A stretch of DNA of 64,000 nt from a virus: IMG/VR virus record IMGVR_UViG_3300047408_000076, positions 1 to 64,000 of that record. One strand, written 5' to 3'. Made by a program: the position numbers and the translations under genes. Numbering within the stretch: position 1 is the stretch's first letter; every line of letters begins with the position of its first letter. Below the pieces are notes generated by a model. The model was not told where the DNA came from. It made no database searches and was given only the letters and a program-made list of their open reading frames with translations. Positions 25,610 to 60,312 of this stretch are shown here, one piece after another.

Positions 25610-25638
25610 TTGCAACGCGCGGAAAAATTTGCCATATA
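25610..25638 (+). promoter_or_regulatory. Candidate promoter of the MoxR/VWA island
   Basis: TTGCAA (25610-25615), 17-bp spacer, CATATA (25633-25638). It is the only promoter-like element I see between the GC-rich tract and the first gene, leaving a 5' leader of about 300 bases that contains a long stem-loop and RNA cassette A. Confidence 0.45.
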
Positions 25639-25850: not shown

Positions 25851-25949
25851 GAACACTAAGAGGGCCGCGCGCGTTGCGGCCCTTCATAGTGTCCATACGG
25901 ATGCTCCCGGCTTGCTACCGGGCCTTTCCCAGATGAGGAGTCTAAAACA
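25851..25949 (+). ncRNA. Two-hairpin intergenic RNA cassette, copy A
   Basis: Outer stem ACACTA (25853-25858)/TAGTGT (25887-25892) encloses an inner stem AGGGCCGC/GCGGCCCT (25861-25883). A second hairpin CCCGG-CTTGCTA-CCGGG (25906-25922) follows, then GATGAGGAGTCTAA and the MoxR ATG. Copies B and C keep the pairing but change the bases, so the structure appears selected. No T-run follows either stem, so it is not a terminator. Confidence 0.7.
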
Positions 25950-26966
25950 ATGGCAGTAAATCAAGAGCATGAAATCACGATATCGGAAGCGGCCGTCCGC
26001 TTAGAGATTCTAACGGACGCGGGCGACTCCGTTATGCTTTGGGGCGCGCCCGGAATCGGCAAGTCCGATATCGTGCATCAATTGGGGGCGAAAAAGGGCC
26101 GCAAGGTAATTGAGTTCCATGCGGCATTGCGGGAGACGGTAGACCTTCGGGGAATCCCGGTTCCAGATTTGGCAACGGGCAAGACTCGATGGCTCATTCC
26201 CGATGAGCTTCCCAATGCGGAACGCGACGGGGAACACGGGTATTTATTTTGCGATGAAATCAATCAAGCTTCACCGCAAATGCAAGGAGTCCTTGGCGGA
26301 CTCATTCTCTATGGCACAATTGGCGATTACAGACTCCCGGCCGGATGGCGGGTTATTGCCGCTGGCAATCGAGTCTCTGATCGCGCGGCCGCGCAAAGAA
26401 TGCCGACTCATATGCGCAATCGGTTCGCTCATCTATTCATAGCACCCGACGTTAATGCGTGGTGCCAGTGGGCAAACGCGAATCGAGTCGCCCCGGAGGT
26501 TGTCGCGTTCGTCCGCTTGCGGCGCGAATTGATTCACCTAATGCCGAAGGGCGACGAAAATGCTTTCCCGACTCCCCGCTCAATTACCAAAGCGGCGAAA
26601 TACGTGAGCGCTCCGAAAGAGCATCGCTTGTCACTATTCGGGGCTTTGATTGGCGACGCGGTAGCGGCGGAATTGGACGGTTTTCTAGAGCTTTACCGTT
26701 CACTCGGTTCGCTGGACGATATCATAGCGAATCCGGCCGGTGCGCCCGTTCCTACGGAACCGTCATGCCGCTTTGCGGTCTGCACCGGGCTTGCTCGCAT
26801 GGCCTCCCGCAAAAACTTTGGCGCGATCATTGACTACGCCAAGCGCTTGAACCGCGAGTCCGAAATCTTGCTGGTAACGGACGCAACGGGGCGCGATGAG
26901 AGTCTGAAAAATACTGCGCCATACGGGCAATGGGCGGTAGCCAATCAAGATTTGACAATCCAATGA
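25950..26966 (+). CDS. MoxR-family AAA+ ATPase
   Basis: 338 aa. Walker A GAPGIGKS at residues 32-39, Walker B LFCDEIN at about 98-104 and sensor-1 AAGN near 137-140. The region RETVDLRGIPVPDL (about 61-74) matches the MoxR/CobS-type insertion after Walker A. MoxR ATPases pair with VWA proteins and act as chaperones or remodelers of large complexes or metal sites; the VWA partner here is three genes downstream. SD GAGGAG lies in RNA cassette A. GANTC sites are about five times denser than chance in this gene. The substrate is unknown. The next gene overlaps at ATGA. Confidence 0.85.
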   Translation: MAVNQEHEITISEAAVRLEILTDAGDSVMLWGAPGIGKSDIVHQLGAKKGRKVIEFHAALRETVDLRGIPVPDLATGKTRWLIPDELPNAERDGEHGYLFCDEINQASPQMQGVLGGLILYGTIGDYRLPAGWRVIAAGNRVSDRAAAQRMPTHMRNRFAHLFIAPDVNAWCQWANANRVAPEVVAFVRLRRELIHLMPKGDENAFPTPRSITKAAKYVSAPKEHRLSLFGALIGDAVAAELDGFLELYRSLGSLDDIIANPAGAPVPTEPSCRFAVCTGLARMASRKNFGAIIDYAKRLNRESEILLVTDATGRDESLKNTAPYGQWAVANQDLTIQ

Positions 26967-27124
26967 TTCAGCAAATCTTGATCTATGCGGCATATCTTTG
27001 CGGCATTGCCGCGTTTGGTTATGTCGCGCACCGTCGCGGCCATAACGGATTTTATTGGGGCTTGCTCGCGCTCCTGATAACTCCGCTTTTCGCATGGCCG
27101 CTTCTAAAACGGAGGCCAGAGTGA
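26963..27124 (+). CDS. Small two-span membrane protein in the MoxR operon
   Basis: 53 aa from the ATG at 26963, overlapping the MoxR stop. Two hydrophobic segments (QQILIYAAYLCGIAAFGYVA and FYWGLLALLITPLFAWPL) separated by HRRGHNG, ending LLKRRPE. It could anchor the MoxR complex to the membrane, but only the coupling supports that. Confidence 0.65.
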   Translation: MIQQILIYAAYLCGIAAFGYVAHRRGHNGFYWGLLALLITPLFAWPLLKRRPE

Positions 27125-27220
27125 ACACTACAGAGTCGCCCTTCGGGGCGATTCGATAGTGTCCATACGGATGCTCCCCGGCTTGCTCCGGGGCCTTTCC
27201 CAGATGAGGAGTCTAATACC
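27122..27220 (+). ncRNA. Two-hairpin intergenic RNA cassette, copy B
   Basis: Outer stem ACACTA (27125-27130)/TAGTGT (27157-27162). Inner stem AGTCGCCC/GGGCGATT closes a TTCG tetraloop (27134-27153). Second hairpin CCCCGG-CTTGCT-CCGGGG (27176-27193), then GATGAGGAGTCTAA and the next ATG. From TAGTGT to the SD it is nearly identical to copy A, with compensating changes in the hairpin. Confidence 0.7.
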
Positions 27221-28111
27221 ATGACAACAACAACTAAAATTGCGTCCCCTCTTTCCCGCAAGGCTACGCTTGTGGCCGTTAAAATCGGCGGATGGTCCGC
27301 GCGCAAATTAGACCGTGAAATCACAGCGGAGACGAACGCGCGGCACAATGCTTCGGCGGACGCGGGACGCTACAATAAGTTGCTGATCAATACGGAACGA
27401 CTCGCCAAGCTCACGTCCCTCGCATCGCAAGCCCGGACGCTGCACTATTCCCTAACGAGTCCATGGGCGGATGAGGGCGCGCGCGTTCTCCCCAATGCGT
27501 TCTATTCCAAGTTCACCGATGAGTTTAGAATCTTAAAGCGGGAGTTTAGTGCAGCGGCGGATGAGTTCGCACGCGATTATCCCGCGTTCGTTCAAGAGCG
27601 AAAAGCGCAATTGAACGGTGCTTTCAAGGAGTCCGATTATCCTTCCGCTTCGGAGATTCGCGGCAAGTTCCGGCTTGAAATCGCGGTGCTTCCGTTCCCG
27701 GACGCGGCGGACTTCCGCTCCGATTTGGACGATGACACCGTGGCCGATATCAGGGCGGAGATTGAAGCGACTTCGGGCGCGGTGCTGCAAGACTCTTTGA
27801 AGGACGCGGCAGAACGTATCATCAAAAAAGTCGGACATATGGCCGCGAAGCTTAAGGAATATAAGACTGGCAAGCCCGGTGAACGTAAGTTTTTCGCGGA
27901 CTCGCTTGTGGAAAATGTCCGCGAGCTTGCGGCAATGCTCCCGGCTTTCAATCTTGCGGACGATGCGGCATTGACTGCCATAACGGAGCGAATTGAAAAA
28001 GAGTTGTGCGCGGAGGACGCACAAGCGCTCCGGGATAACGACTCCGCCCGCGAGTCCGTCGCAAAATCGGCGGACGATATTGTAGCGGAGGTTTCAAAGT
28101 TTTTAGCCTAA
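27221..28111 (+). CDS. DUF3150-like protein of the MoxR/VWA module
   Basis: 296 aa. Mostly helical, with an N-terminal VAVKIGGWSARKLDRE, NAGRY-like DAGRYNKLLIN, LPNAFYSKFTDEF, and a C-terminal charged coil. This follows the DUF3150 pattern as I remember it, a family often placed beside MoxR ATPases and VWA proteins in phages and plasmids. Function is unknown; a scaffold or regulator of the ATPase/VWA pair is the likeliest reading. The SD GAGGAG is supplied by cassette B. No enzymatic motif is visible. Confidence 0.7.
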   Translation: MTTTTKIASPLSRKATLVAVKIGGWSARKLDREITAETNARHNASADAGRYNKLLINTERLAKLTSLASQARTLHYSLTSPWADEGARVLPNAFYSKFTDEFRILKREFSAAADEFARDYPAFVQERKAQLNGAFKESDYPSASEIRGKFRLEIAVLPFPDAADFRSDLDDDTVADIRAEIEATSGAVLQDSLKDAAERIIKKVGHMAAKLKEYKTGKPGERKFFADSLVENVRELAAMLPAFNLADDAALTAITERIEKELCAEDAQALRDNDSARESVAKSADDIVAEVSKFLA

Positions 28112-28208
28112 GCCCTACTAAGCGGAGTCCCAATGGGACTCCGTCATAGTGTGGCCAAAGCCCCGCTCCCCGGCTTGCTCCGGGGCCTTCAATCAAGAGG
28201 AGTCCAAT
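28112..28208 (+). ncRNA. Two-hairpin intergenic RNA cassette, copy C
   Basis: Inner stem CGGAGTCCC/GGGACTCCG (28123-28143), flanked by CTACTA and TAGTGT (28147-28152) as a weakened outer stem. Second hairpin CCCCGG-CTTGCT-CCGGGG (28168-28185), then AAGAGGAGTCC and the VWA ATG. The inner stem differs in sequence from A and B but pairs over nine bases. Confidence 0.68.
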
Positions 28209-29726
28209 ATGAATCTCGACTCGACGACAACGGACGAACGCGCGGCATATCGTGTTATGCAGGCCCGTTCCGCCCTGATCAAAGCTCGCCGATTCTACGG
28301 TGTATTGGTTTCAAATGTGGAACCCGTAGCATCGCGACAATTCCCGACAATGGCAACGGATTCAAAGCGTCACTTCTATAATCCCGATTTTGTTGCGACA
28401 CTGACTCAAGAGCAATTAGAAGCGGTGCAAGCTCACGAAACGGAGCATGACGCGCGGCACCATTCGACGCGGCGCGGGAATCGCGACCCGCAAGAATGGA
28501 ATATCGCTTGCGACCTTGCGATTAATCCTGACTTGAAGGCGGAAGGATTCAAGCTCCCCGATTGGGTGCTATTCGAAGAACGGTTCCGGGGAATGTCCGC
28601 CGAAGACATATACCGGACGCGCGAGCTAGACCGGCAAAAGCAAAATCCGCCACCGCCTCCGCCGACTCAAAAGGGCGACGATGAGGAATCCGAATCTGGA
28701 CTCGAACAAGCCGACACTAATCCGGGCGGGAATGAGGGCGAGTCCGATGAGGGCGACGAGTCCGAAGGCCCCGCCGGCCCCGATGAGGGCGACGATGAGG
28801 GCGACGATGAGGGCGACGGGGAGGCCGGCCCCGGTGAAGGCCCGGAGGGCGACGGGGAGGGCGAGTCCGAAGGCCCCGCCAAGGGCGACGGGGAGGCCGG
28901 TGAAGGCCCCGCCGAAGCCGGGGAGGCCGGGGACGCTGGCAACGGTGCGGGCGACGGTGAAGGCCCGGAGGGCGACGGGGAGGCCCCGAAGGGCGAACCG
29001 CGTTCGTCCGGTGATCCCGGCCGGTGCGGGGAGGTTTTAGACGCGGGCGAATCGGCCGGCGAAAAAGCGGAGACTGACCAGAAATGGGAAAGGATAGTGC
29101 GCCAAGCCGCTTCTATGGCACGGGGAATCGGGCAACTCCCCGGCCACATTTCCCGCGACATTGAACGGGCGAATAATCCGCCGCAAGATTGGCGGGAGGT
29201 TCTCCGGGCTTGGTTTGATCAGGGGTCGCTTTGGGTTGAGTCCTGGAACCGGCCCAATCGTCGCTTTGCGGGCGCGGGCTTGTACCTTCCGGGGCGGCAA
29301 CGCGACGGACTCAATCGAGTCGCGTTCATAATTGACACAAGCGGGTCGATGGACAATGTGGCATTGCAATTGATCAGGAATGAAACGCAAGCCGCTTTGG
29401 ACGATGGCGCAATAGATGAGGTTGTTTGCATCTATGGTGACACACAAGTAAATCGGGTGGACACTTGGCGCACGGGCGATGAAATGATTTTCGACCCGCG
29501 CGGCGGCGGCGGAACGGTGCTTCGTCCGCTTTTCGACTACGTTGCGGAACAAATAGACGATGCTTCCCTAATCGTTTGTTTCACCGATATGGAAATAGAT
29601 GATTTGGGGCCGGAGCCTCCCGCTTGTCCGGTGCTATTCGCCGCGACGGGCTATCCTGACAGAGTCCGTTATTATCTTGAAAACGCCCCATGGGGCGCGC
29701 CCGGAATCGATATCGGGGCGCACTAG
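28209..29726 (+). CDS. Metallopeptidase-like / VWA domain protein (MoxR partner)
   Basis: 505 aa from the ATG at 28209 after AGAGGAG; an in-frame upstream start would lie inside cassette C. The N-terminal domain carries HETEH at 76-80 (HExxH zinc-metallopeptidase-like) and LAINPDLKAEGFKLPDW, as in DUF2201-type proteins. Residues about 155-290 are an acidic Gly/Glu/Asp/Pro low-complexity linker. The C-terminal VWA domain shows the MIDAS motif DTSGS at 376-380, a GGGGT segment and a downstream FTD. With the MoxR ATPase it likely forms a remodeling pair; the HExxH suggests a metal-dependent activity, untested. Confidence 0.8.
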   Translation: MNLDSTTTDERAAYRVMQARSALIKARRFYGVLVSNVEPVASRQFPTMATDSKRHFYNPDFVATLTQEQLEAVQAHETEHDARHHSTRRGNRDPQEWNIACDLAINPDLKAEGFKLPDWVLFEERFRGMSAEDIYRTRELDRQKQNPPPPPPTQKGDDEESESGLEQADTNPGGNEGESDEGDESEGPAGPDEGDDEGDDEGDGEAGPGEGPEGDGEGESEGPAKGDGEAGEGPAEAGEAGDAGNGAGDGEGPEGDGEAPKGEPRSSGDPGRCGEVLDAGESAGEKAETDQKWERIVRQAASMARGIGQLPGHISRDIERANNPPQDWREVLRAWFDQGSLWVESWNRPNRRFAGAGLYLPGRQRDGLNRVAFIIDTSGSMDNVALQLIRNETQAALDDGAIDEVVCIYGDTQVNRVDTWRTGDEMIFDPRGGGGTVLRPLFDYVAEQIDDASLIVCFTDMEIDDLGPEPPACPVLFAATGYPDRVRYYLENAPWGAPGIDIGAH

Positions 29727-29730
29727 ACGC

Positions 29731-29766
29731 AAGGGCCGGCCCCGCAACGGGCCGGCCCTTTTTTTT
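29731..29766 (+). terminator. Rho-independent terminator after the VWA gene
   Basis: Perfect 12-bp stem AAGGGCCGGCCC / GGGCCGGCCCTT (29731-29742 and 29749-29760), 6-nt loop, eight T. It closes the MoxR/VWA operon. Confidence 0.92.
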
Positions 29767-29940
29767 GTCCGCGCTCCGGGCTTGGCGCGCGCGGGGAGGC
29801 CGGTGCGGGGAGGCGGGGAGCGGGGAGGCCGGCGGGAGCGGGGAGGCCAGCGGCGCGCGCGGTGCGGGGAGCGGGGCCGGTGCGGGGAGGCCGGCCGGTG
29901 CGGGGAGCGCTCCGGGCCTCCGGGGAGTCGCGCCGCGAAT
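29767..29940. repeat. GC-rich low-complexity tract, right border of the island
   Basis: Built almost only from GGGGAGGCCGG, GCGGGGAGCGGGG and GGCCGGTGCGGGG words. It shares these with 25192-25609. Frames are open on several strands only because stops are rare at this composition; no gene is supported. Confidence 0.75.
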
Positions 29941-29962
29941 TGGACCATACCATTGAACGTCA

Positions 29963-30000
29963 AAGGCCCGCTCCGGGGAACCGGGGCGGGCCTTTTTTTT
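29963..30000 (+). terminator. Second rho-independent terminator
   Basis: 14-bp stem AAGGCCCGCTCCGG / CCGGGGCGGGCCTT with one wobble pair, GGAA loop, eight T (29993-30000). It terminates read-through across the GC-rich tract. Confidence 0.9.
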
Positions 30001-30037
30001 GTCCCGCTTGCTACAGGACAAAAGAGGAGTCGCTAAT
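30001..30037 (+). ncRNA. Partial RNA cassette, copy D
   Basis: GTCC-CGCTTGCTACA-GGAC reproduces the CTTGCT-loop hairpin, followed by AGAGGAGTCGCTAAT as in the SD region of A-C. The first hairpin is replaced by the preceding terminator. Only a 13-codon frame (ATG at 30051) follows, so this may be a remnant after gene loss. Confidence 0.5.
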
Positions 30038-30098
30038 CTTTCGATTGGCAATGGCAATGGTACGCGCACCGCTCCGCCAAAGCAACAGCTAAAGGATT

Positions 30099-58503: not shown

Positions 58504-60312
58504 ATGGCTGCTTTCATTGATTTCGTGAGCTGGGCTCAGCGTTGGACCAACGAGGAATATTCGTTGTTTCGCACCCGCATGCGCGGTGTTCAGTTTCTCG
58601 GCCCCGATGTGCAGAGGAAATGGGATGTCGCGATTGCGCTCGACTACATCGACCTCGACGATCCGATCATGGAGCCGTTCAAGGAGCAATTGGTAGTACA
58701 GAATATTCTCTCGCAAGATCGTGTGGACGTGATCTTCTCGCCGGATGGCACCAGTGCTACGCCGCCTGTGGGTGCTGGTCCGCCAGAAGGTGTTGGTCCA
58801 CCAGGACTGCAAGGCCCGCCCGGACCTCAAGGTGAAGCTGGACCGCAGGGCGAGCCAGGACCGCAAGGCGATCCTGGGCCTGTTGGCCCAGAAGGCCCGC
58901 AAGGCGAGGACGGCGCTCAAGGTCCAGAAGGTCTGCAAGGCCAGATTGGTCAGCAGGGAACACCGGGTGACGCTGGGCCAATGGGACCAGAAGGCCCCGC
59001 TGGCGAAGATGGCACGCAGGGGCCTGCCGGTGTGCAGGGTTTGCCGGGACCGGAAGGTCCAGCGGGCATCCAGGGTTCGATCGGTGCGCAAGGACCGGCT
59101 GGGCCGCAAGGTGGTCAAGGCGAGCCTGGGTTGGTCGGCGCAGGAGGGCCGCAAGGGCCGCAGGGTGTGCAAGGACCGCCGGGAAACACTGCCACGATCA
59201 TCGGCAGCTTCACCAACAAGACGATCGCCGAGCTACCGCCGTCAGGTTACATCCCGCAGGATTGGGATTCGCCCGGTAATCCGCCGCTCGGCAATCAGAT
59301 GGCGAACGGGCAGGGGCTGCTCCATCAGCCGACGCAAGAGGTTTGCTTGTGGGTTGGCCCTACGCTGACGCCCGAGGGCTGGATCACGCTGGGCGACGTG
59401 CAAGGACCAGCGGGGCCAGCAGGGCCGCAAGGTCAGGACGGTGTGCAAGGGCCGCAGGGCATCCAAGGTCCACCGGGCTCTGACGCTTCGCCGGGGCAGC
59501 CGGGGCCGCAAGGTATACCTGGGCTGCAAGGTATCCAGGGCGAGCAGGGGCCTCAAGGCATCCAAGGCGTTGCTGGACCTCCGGGGCCGAAAGGCAATCC
59601 GGGTGATCCTGGCGCAACGGGTTTGCAGGGACCGCAAGGCGCGCCCGGCAACACGGGCGCGCAAGGCCAGAAGGGCGACACGGGCGTACAGGGGCCGCAG
59701 GGCGTTGCTGGCACGCAAGGTGCGCCCGGTGCGCAGGGCCTTGCTGGGCCGCAAGGACCGGCTGGCGCTGCTGGCGTGCAAGGACCTGCGGGTCCGTCTG
59801 CTGTCAGCGCGAACGCGGGCAACATAGCCAAGCTCGGTAGCGACAATCTCATCCTTGTCCCGGACAACGCGCCGCGCCGAGGCGTCACGGATGGCACTGA
59901 CGCTGCTGCCGGGATGGTGGGCGAATATCTGCTGGCCAACAACACCGCTGGCAGCGCCTTGACCACAGGCGTGCCGATCAACGTCGCGACATTGACGTTG
60001 TCAGCAGGCGACTGGGACGTGTGGGGACAGACCATTTTCACTGAAGGAGCCAACACGATCCCGACCGTGCTGGCCTCAGCCACTTCTCCGAACTCTGCGA
60101 CTCTGCCGACTCCTGCGCAGCTCGCGACCGGATTGGGAGCAATGTCGCAGATCGCCGCGACCATGACCAAGGGGCTCACTCAGATCATGCAGACGGGGCC
60201 GGATCGTTACAATTCCAGCGCTTCACAAAACGTCTACCTCGTATCGCAGGCGACTTTCAGCGGTGGGACGTTGAGTGTGACGGGCTTCATCTCGGCGCGA
60301 CGAATCCGGTGA
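58504..60312 (+). CDS. Collagen-like Gly-X-Y repeat protein (tail or head fibre)
   Basis: 602 aa. N-terminal about 85 residues form a folded domain ([36 protein letters not shown]). Two long G-x-y blocks (about nt 58777-59180 and 59403-59800) are split by a non-collagen module ([20 protein letters not shown] ... WITLGDVQ) typical of phage fibres. The C-terminal 170 residues ([20 protein letters not shown] ... GFISARRIR) resemble a trimeric adhesin head. It would form a triple-helical fibre. GC-rich slippage-prone repeats. Confidence 0.85.

What the first reader, a model, noticed from the sequence alone, without database searches (positions are those of the whole stretch)
25851..30037. Covarying two-hairpin RNA cassette repeated before each larger gene of the island
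Copies A (25851), B (27122) and C (28112) share an outer ACACTA/TAGTGT stem, an inner stem whose sequence differs in every copy but always pairs (AGGGCCGC/GCGGCCCT, AGTCGCCC/GGGCGATT, CGGAGTCCC/GGGACTCCG), and a second hairpin with a fixed CTTGCT loop and compensating stem changes, then GAGGAGTC. Copy D keeps only the second hairpin. Compensating change argues for a functional RNA: translation control, mRNA processing or stoichiometry setting.
Basis: seen in the sequence. Interest (0 to 1): 0.85.

Follow-up and report, generated by a model that had tools for sequence, protein, structure and literature searches.

The report
Repeated phage leader with antisense RNA
A group of uncultured phages puts the same three-hairpin RNA switch in front of nearly every gene of one operon and appears to encode, at the operon's end, a single small antisense RNA that matches the start signals of all those genes, so one RNA could silence or tune the whole operon.

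Summary
Copies A, B and C precede a MoxR-like ATPase, a DUF3150 protein and a DUF2201 metallopeptidase/VWA protein. A covariance model finds 129 copies in 32 viral loci (E<=0.01), all on the coding strand; in whole records they lie only in this operon. Both helices covary, even when arms are permuted only within one phage. G·U pairs far outnumber A·C mismatches, so the element works as sense mRNA.

"Copy D" is not a degraded copy. Fifteen phages have such a site after the operon, without a start codon, carrying that phage's own start motif and mostly its loop motif. Its hairpins are more stable on the minus strand, where promoter-like sites are strongly enriched. D most likely encodes a trans-acting antisense RNA that pairs with the Shine-Dalgarno motif and hairpin loop of every gene in the operon. 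The leader is well supported; the antisense RNA is inferred, without expression data. Rfam and annotated phages hold no match.

The parts
25610..25638 (+). Candidate promoter of the operon, TTGCAA-17-CATATA, same spacing as the candidate promoters at D
   Evidence: sequence; located; no expression data
25851..25949 (+). Leader copy A: arm1 25851-25857, inner stem 25861-25868/25876-25883, arm2 25888-25894, arm3 25899-25905, hairpin 3 25906-25922 (loop CTTGCT 25911-25916), SD motif GAGGAGTC 25935-25942, before the MoxR-like ATPase
25950..26966 (+). MoxR-like AAA+ ATPase (AAA_5, phrog_1297)
27122..27220 (+). Leader copy B: stop codon TGA of a small upstream ORF 27122-27124, arm1 27123-27129, arm2 27158-27164, arm3 27169-27175, hairpin 3 27176-27193, SD motif 27206-27213
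27221..28111 (+). DUF3150 protein (weak Pfam match, below the gathering score; conserved in the phage group)
28113..28208 (+). Leader copy C: arm1 CCCTACT 28113-28119, arm2 AGTGTGG 28148-28154, arm3 CCCCGCT 28161-28167 (all three arms changed together against A/B), hairpin 3 28168-28185, SD motif 28197-28204
28209..29726 (+). DUF2201 putative metallopeptidase plus VWA-like domain
29962..30000 (+). Terminator hairpin and T8 directly in front of D; read on the minus strand the hairpin is followed by TTT
29956..30050 (-). Proposed antisense RNA gene (D), about 95 nt: hairpin with GACTCC in its loop (30041-30021), hairpin with TAGCAAG loop (30023-29997; a C.A mismatch on + becomes U.G on -), then the shared terminator hairpin. 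Ends are estimates
   Evidence: transcription not shown
30057..30085 (-). Candidate promoter of the antisense RNA: -35 TTGCTT (30085-30080), 17 nt, -10 TACCAT (30062-30057)
   Evidence: not picked by the stricter scan

Best explanation
Each of these genes carries a leader that starts at the stop codon of the gene before it. Arm2 pairs either with arm1 (long hairpin with a variable GC-rich top) or with arm3 (short hairpin). A ribosome finishing the upstream gene would sit on arm1 and force the arm2-arm3 form, so the junction can sense upstream translation. Next come a small hairpin that displays a fixed loop (CTTGCT here, CTTGCA in most relatives) and a phage-specific Shine-Dalgarno motif (GAGGAGTC here, GGAGTCAC in most relatives). 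At the end of the operon, D is transcribed from the opposite strand, from a promoter to its right back towards the operon terminator, as a short RNA. Its loops are the reverse complements of the leader loop and of the Shine-Dalgarno motif. This RNA pairs with the leaders of all these genes (loop-loop contact, then covering of the Shine-Dalgarno) and blocks their translation or exposes them to RNase. Supported by sequence: the leader family, both helices, sense-strand action, D's conservation and co-change. Inferred: transcription of D, pairing in the cell, repression, and the ribosome-driven switch.
For: Leader: 129 model hits in 32 loci, all on the operon strand; in the longer records the hits lie only in the operon. 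5 of 7 arm2-arm3 pairs have two-sided changes, and 0/500 shuffles reach the covariation score of the modelled structure. Within-phage permutation p=0.0005 for both arm1-arm2 and arm2-arm3. G.U versus A.C on the + strand: 22:3 (arm2-arm3), 25:9 (arm1-arm2), 31:15 (inner stem). The upstream stop codon lies at arm1 position -1 in 18 of 32 copies and within -8..+6 in 28 of 32. Folding predicts that 38 of 39 copies take the arm2-arm3 form when arm1 is covered. D: in 15 distinct phages, without a start codon; in 9 of 10 tested it is the only loop+SD pair without a gene. Own-phage match of loop and SD exceeds swapped ones (p<=5e-5). Hairpin 1 is more stable on the minus strand in 11 of 12, one tie, above composition-matched shuffles. 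The SD hairpin is more stable on the minus strand in 13 of 13 non-ties. Minus-strand promoter score 7.47 versus 4.62 background, 0/5000 resamples; plus strand of the same stretch 4.47, p=0.58.
Against: No transcript of D, or of anything else here, has been seen. The window's own D promoter is weak (TTGCTT 3 of 6, TACCAT 4 of 6) and a stricter scan does not report it. In the minus direction the shared terminator hairpin has a good T-run in only some phages. Raw duplex energy ranks the own D first in only 1 of 12 phages, because GC-rich D sequences bind everything well. Folding does not predict that the arm1/arm3 switch itself changes Shine-Dalgarno exposure. Two phages (L068, L086) have D-like sites with the SD motif but without the loop hairpin, so loop-loop contact is not universal. 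D sites were found with loop and SD patterns, so their presence is not an unbiased count.
Confidence: 0.6

Rival explanations
1. Sense-strand protein site: a phage RNA-binding protein recognises the fixed-loop hairpin plus the start motif in each leader, and D is a decoy or autoregulatory site in a read-through transcript.
For: The loop and motif are identical in D and in the leaders of the same phage, as expected for a shared binding site.
Against: D lies behind the terminator of the only transcript that would carry it. Its stems have C.A mismatches on the sense strand that become U.G on the minus strand, and the promoter signal is on the minus strand only.
Confidence: 0.17
2. Cis processing element: the long arm1-arm2 hairpin is cut by RNase III when the upstream gene is not translated, and hairpin 3 protects the new 5' end of the downstream message, so each gene gets its own mRNA stability.
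For: Long stem with a small internal loop between genes, variable sequence with kept pairing; sense-strand action; the architecture resembles phage T7 RNase III sites (own knowledge).
Against: Does not explain the fixed loop, the conserved bases beyond the Shine-Dalgarno, or D. It can coexist with the antisense model.
Confidence: 0.15
3. DNA-level site: operator/promoter (as mycobacteriophage ESAS) or a recombination site of a cassette array.
For: Repeated inverted arms between genes; ESAS of cluster K phages contain SigA-like promoters (PMC11373665).
Against: A strong excess of G.U over A.C on one strand is not expected for DNA; arm sequences differ between copies of one phage while pairing is kept; the core gene order MoxR-DUF3150-VWA is kept between phages.
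Confidence: 0.05
4. D is a remnant: the last leader after loss of its gene.
For: It contains the loop and the start motif.
Against: Kept in 15 phages at the end of the operon with the motifs in hairpin loops and no start codon, while stems and flanks diverge (only one pair of D regions is more than 65% alike).
Confidence: 0.03

Closest known systems
[quoted passage not shown]
   Same: Repeated conserved motif around the Shine-Dalgarno of many genes of one phage, conserved beyond what pairs with 16S rRNA, often with an inverted repeat upstream; inverted-repeat consensus differs between phage subgroups; function unknown. [quoted passage not shown]
   Different: SAS are spread over the right half of the genome, not one operon. 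ESAS contain SigA-like promoters (PMC11373665) and one inverted repeat. Here there are three covarying helices with sense-RNA strand bias, and a dedicated antisense-type locus.
Antisense RNAs that block translation: P22 sar (own knowledge), pMV158 RNAII (PMC4485353), repABC ctRNA of Alphaproteobacteria (PMC3155836)
   Same: Short RNA from the opposite strand; hairpin loops complementary to the target's loop or ribosome-binding region.
   Different: Those act on one target that they overlap. Here one RNA would act in trans on several genes of an operon, each with its own copy of the target leader, and RNA and leaders change together between phages.
Phage T7 RNase III sites (own knowledge)
   Same: Intergenic hairpins with internal loops that separate the genes of a polycistronic phage mRNA.
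   Different: No conserved loop, no start motif, no antisense partner.
HK022 put RNA antiterminator (own knowledge)
   Same: Two-hairpin RNA element carried in cis.
   Different: put lies near the start of early operons, not before each gene; no put paper was found in the library, so it was not compared by sequence.

Membership tests
Rfam families (release 15) | Match at or above a family's gathering score | tested here: not met
   No match at gathering score in the window. Permissive search: only two sub-threshold sRNA hits at 29678-29772, over the gene end and first terminator; none at E<=0.1 in three relatives.
Cluster K SAS/ESAS | 13-bp consensus GGGATAGGAGCCC within a few bases of start codons | tested here: not met
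   Leader motifs are GAGGAGTC, GGAGTCAC, GGAGATTTCC, AAAGGAGCAAACC and others; the SAS consensus was located in Anaya for comparison.
Cluster K SAS/ESAS | ESAS contains SigA-like -35/-10 hexamers in the inverted repeat | not tested
   No promoter scan of the leaders was run; by eye none shows such hexamers 16-18 nt apart in the repeat.
trans-acting antisense RNA | Complementarity to target loop and ribosome-binding region | tested here: met
   D minus strand contains AGCAAG and GACTCCTC, reverse complements of the window's leader loop and SD motif; z <= -2.3 against shuffled D in all 12 phages.
trans-acting antisense RNA | Own transcription unit (promoter, terminator) on the opposite strand | tested here: inconclusive
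   Promoter-like sites strongly enriched on the minus strand; T-run after the shared terminator hairpin good in some phages only.
trans-acting antisense RNA | Expressed and changes target translation | not testable with these tools
   No expression data; host not in culture.
RNase III processing site | Cleavage of the hairpin by RNase III | not testable with these tools
   Only the architecture could be seen.

The most novel reading that the evidence does not exclude
A phage regulon made of RNA only: the gene junctions of an operon carry a bistable, stop-codon-anchored leader, and one antisense RNA encoded at the operon's end recognises all leaders by loop and Shine-Dalgarno contact. RNA and leaders co-evolve into phage-specific codes, so the pair could also give RNA-based immunity between related phages.
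Probability: 0.45. Interest if true: 0.88.

Novelty: new variant of a known kind. Interest (0 to 1): 0.78.

Why it matters
It is a structured RNA family absent from Rfam, with many copies in uncultured phages, and it gives a concrete, testable answer to why some phages repeat conserved sequences at gene starts (an open question since the SAS report of 2011). If one antisense RNA addresses a whole operon through repeated leaders, it is a natural multi-gene translation switch whose specificity code can be read from the phage-specific motif pairs and used for orthogonal control of gene sets. The alternating helices at stop codons would also be a compact way to couple or uncouple translation of neighbouring genes.

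Tried and rejected
N4-like phage with hairpin promoters: not pursued; portal, terminase, tape-measure, RecT and exonuclease matches point to another tailed phage. Shine-Dalgarno sequestration by arm3: by eye ACTCC/GGAGT pairs in many copies but not in others, so dropped; folding shows no change of SD exposure. Hairpin 3 acting on the minus strand (A.C 13 to G.U 2): an artefact of extending the stem into the fixed loop. Prior description: no close relative in annotated phages or plasmids; best MoxR identity there about 36%, and the DNA has no match in phages. Element in Rhizobiales prophages with 45% identical MoxR: none. Phage integrase in the record: none found, so lysogeny stays open. Literature searches for phage-encoded antisense RNAs with many targets found nothing matching.

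Full report
What was checked. The window is bases 1-64000 of a 75,675-base viral record. Each of A-C lies directly before a gene: MoxR-like AAA+ ATPase, DUF3150 protein (weak Pfam match) and DUF2201 metallopeptidase/VWA protein. Rfam has no match at gathering score.

The element is a family. The MoxR protein brought in relatives from viral contigs, and the same element stands before gene after gene of the same operon in most of them. I aligned 39 copies and built a covariance model from arm2 to the Shine-Dalgarno motif. It finds 3 to 10 clear copies per record, always within one stretch of about 2-8 kb, none elsewhere in records of 42-82 kb, and none in a relative with a 66% identical MoxR. 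A wider search with a MoxR profile led to 129 hits with E<=0.01 in 32 chosen loci, all on the operon strand. Prophages of Rhizobiales and other bacterial loci with more distant MoxR genes have none.

Anatomy. From 5' to 3': arm1 (GTGAACACTA), a GC-rich hairpin whose sequence differs in nearly every copy, arm2 (TAGTGTTCAT), arm3 (CGAACACT), a small hairpin with loop CTTGCA (CTTGCT in the window), and GGAGTCAC or GAGGAGTC before the start codon. Arm2 is complementary to both arm1 and arm3, so the two helices exclude each other. Copy C shows it best: all three arms changed together (CCCTACT, AGTGTGG, CCCCGCT). Swapping arm2 between copies of the same phage lowers both pairings (observed above all 2000 permutations for each, p=0.0005). 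On a sequence-only alignment the arm2-arm3 helix has two-sided changes in 5 of 7 pairs, and the modelled structure beats all 500 shuffles on the covariation score.

Strand. A DNA palindrome treats G.T and A.C alike, an RNA does not. On the mRNA strand G.U exceeds A.C 22 to 3 in arm2-arm3, 25 to 9 in arm1-arm2 and 31 to 15 in the inner stem. Copies are related, so the counts are not independent, but the direction is the same in all three. The leader therefore most likely acts as sense RNA.

Link to translation. In 18 of 32 copies with a recognisable upstream ORF its stop codon begins one base before arm1, and in 28 of 32 it lies within -8 to +6. A terminating ribosome would cover arm1. Folding predicts arm1-arm2 as the main form of 26 of 39 free leaders, and arm2-arm3 in 38 of 39 when arm1 is masked. 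Shine-Dalgarno exposure does not change in that calculation, so what the switch does is not settled; creating or removing an RNase III site is one option.

D. Behind the operon terminator, related phages carry a hairpin with the leader loop and then the start motif, with no start codon. I collected 15 distinct phages; only one pair of D regions is more than 65% alike. In L068 and L086 only the start motif is kept, and for L068 no terminator directly in front of D was shown. D carries the motif of its own phage: GAGGAGTC in the window, GGAGATTTCCAA in L075, AAAGGAGCAAACC in L068 and L086; L060 and L087 match less well. Exchanging D between 12 phages lowers the match to loop and motif (p=5e-5 and below).

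Which strand of D. C.A or A.C mismatches in D stems (window, L054, L064, L060, L062, L085) are U.G pairs on the minus strand (by eye). Hairpin 1 is more stable on the minus strand in 11 of 12, one tie, beyond shuffles of the same composition; the whole D region shows the same with p=0.017. The hairpin around the motif is more stable on the minus strand in all 13 non-ties, without a composition control. To the right of D the minus strand has TTGNNN, usually 17 nt, then a TATAAT-like hexamer, with a mean score of 7.47 against 4.62 for random stretches of the same loci (0 of 5000 resamples), while the plus strand of the same stretch scores 4.47. In L085 and L095 the next gene, on the plus strand, has the same kind of promoter by eye (TTGCGC-17-TATGTT) and a bare loop hairpin plus start motif. 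So D looks like an RNA gene transcribed back towards the operon, often sharing its terminator hairpin; the T-run in that direction is good only in some phages.

Mechanism. The D RNA would carry AGCAAG and GACTCCTC (window), the complements of the leader loop and the Shine-Dalgarno motif of all three genes. I infer loop contact followed by covering of the Shine-Dalgarno. That the RNA is made, pairs and represses is not shown.

Comparison. The closest known case is SAS/ESAS of cluster K mycobacteriophages (PMC3203893): start-associated repeats of unknown function; the consensus differs and ESAS contain promoters (PMC11373665). Pope et al. mention a single site in opposite orientation without a gene start in four phages. 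In Anaya I find it at 59882, intergenic, behind a terminator-like hairpin. It could be the same idea and deserves a test. As a mechanism the proposal falls under antisense control of translation, but with one RNA for many repeated targets.

Verdict. Leader family: confidence above 0.9. D as trans-acting antisense RNA gene: about 0.6. No cultured phage with the element was found.

Noticed in passing
L107, L108, L109, L111, L112, L116, L119, L122, L123, L125 (prophage-like contigs with a 42-47% identical MoxR operon; related loci in Brucella, Pseudochrobactrum and Rhizobium genomes): Many genes are preceded by a different mini-hairpin, CCCGCCA-NNN-ATGGCA or CCCGCA-NNN-ATGCR, then CGGAGA and the start codon; stems vary with kept pairing. 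About 4-10 per 19 kb, almost all at gene starts.
   Followed up: partly
L213 (Mycobacterium phage Anaya JF704106) record position 59882, minus strand: The single SAS site in opposite orientation lies between genes 96 and 97, behind a terminator-like hairpin; its plus-strand RNA would carry the complement of all SAS motifs.
   Followed up: partly
L095 14206-14460 and L085 8134-8430: The gene right of D has its own TTGCGC-17-TATGTT promoter-like site and a bare CTTGCAA hairpin plus TGGAGTCAC, so it may be a further target of D.
   Followed up: partly
window 28650-29010: The DUF2201/VWA gene contains a long low-complexity GC-rich repeat (GAGGGCGACGAT units) encoding an acidic Gly/Asp/Glu-rich linker.
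   Followed up: no
L005/L068, L086, L071, L066, L091: Relatives without the CTTGCA hairpin still share one phage-specific Shine-Dalgarno context across the operon's genes (AAAGGAGCAACC, AAAGAGCAAG, GGAGCAATC), some with arm1-arm2 stems of other sequence.
   Followed up: partly
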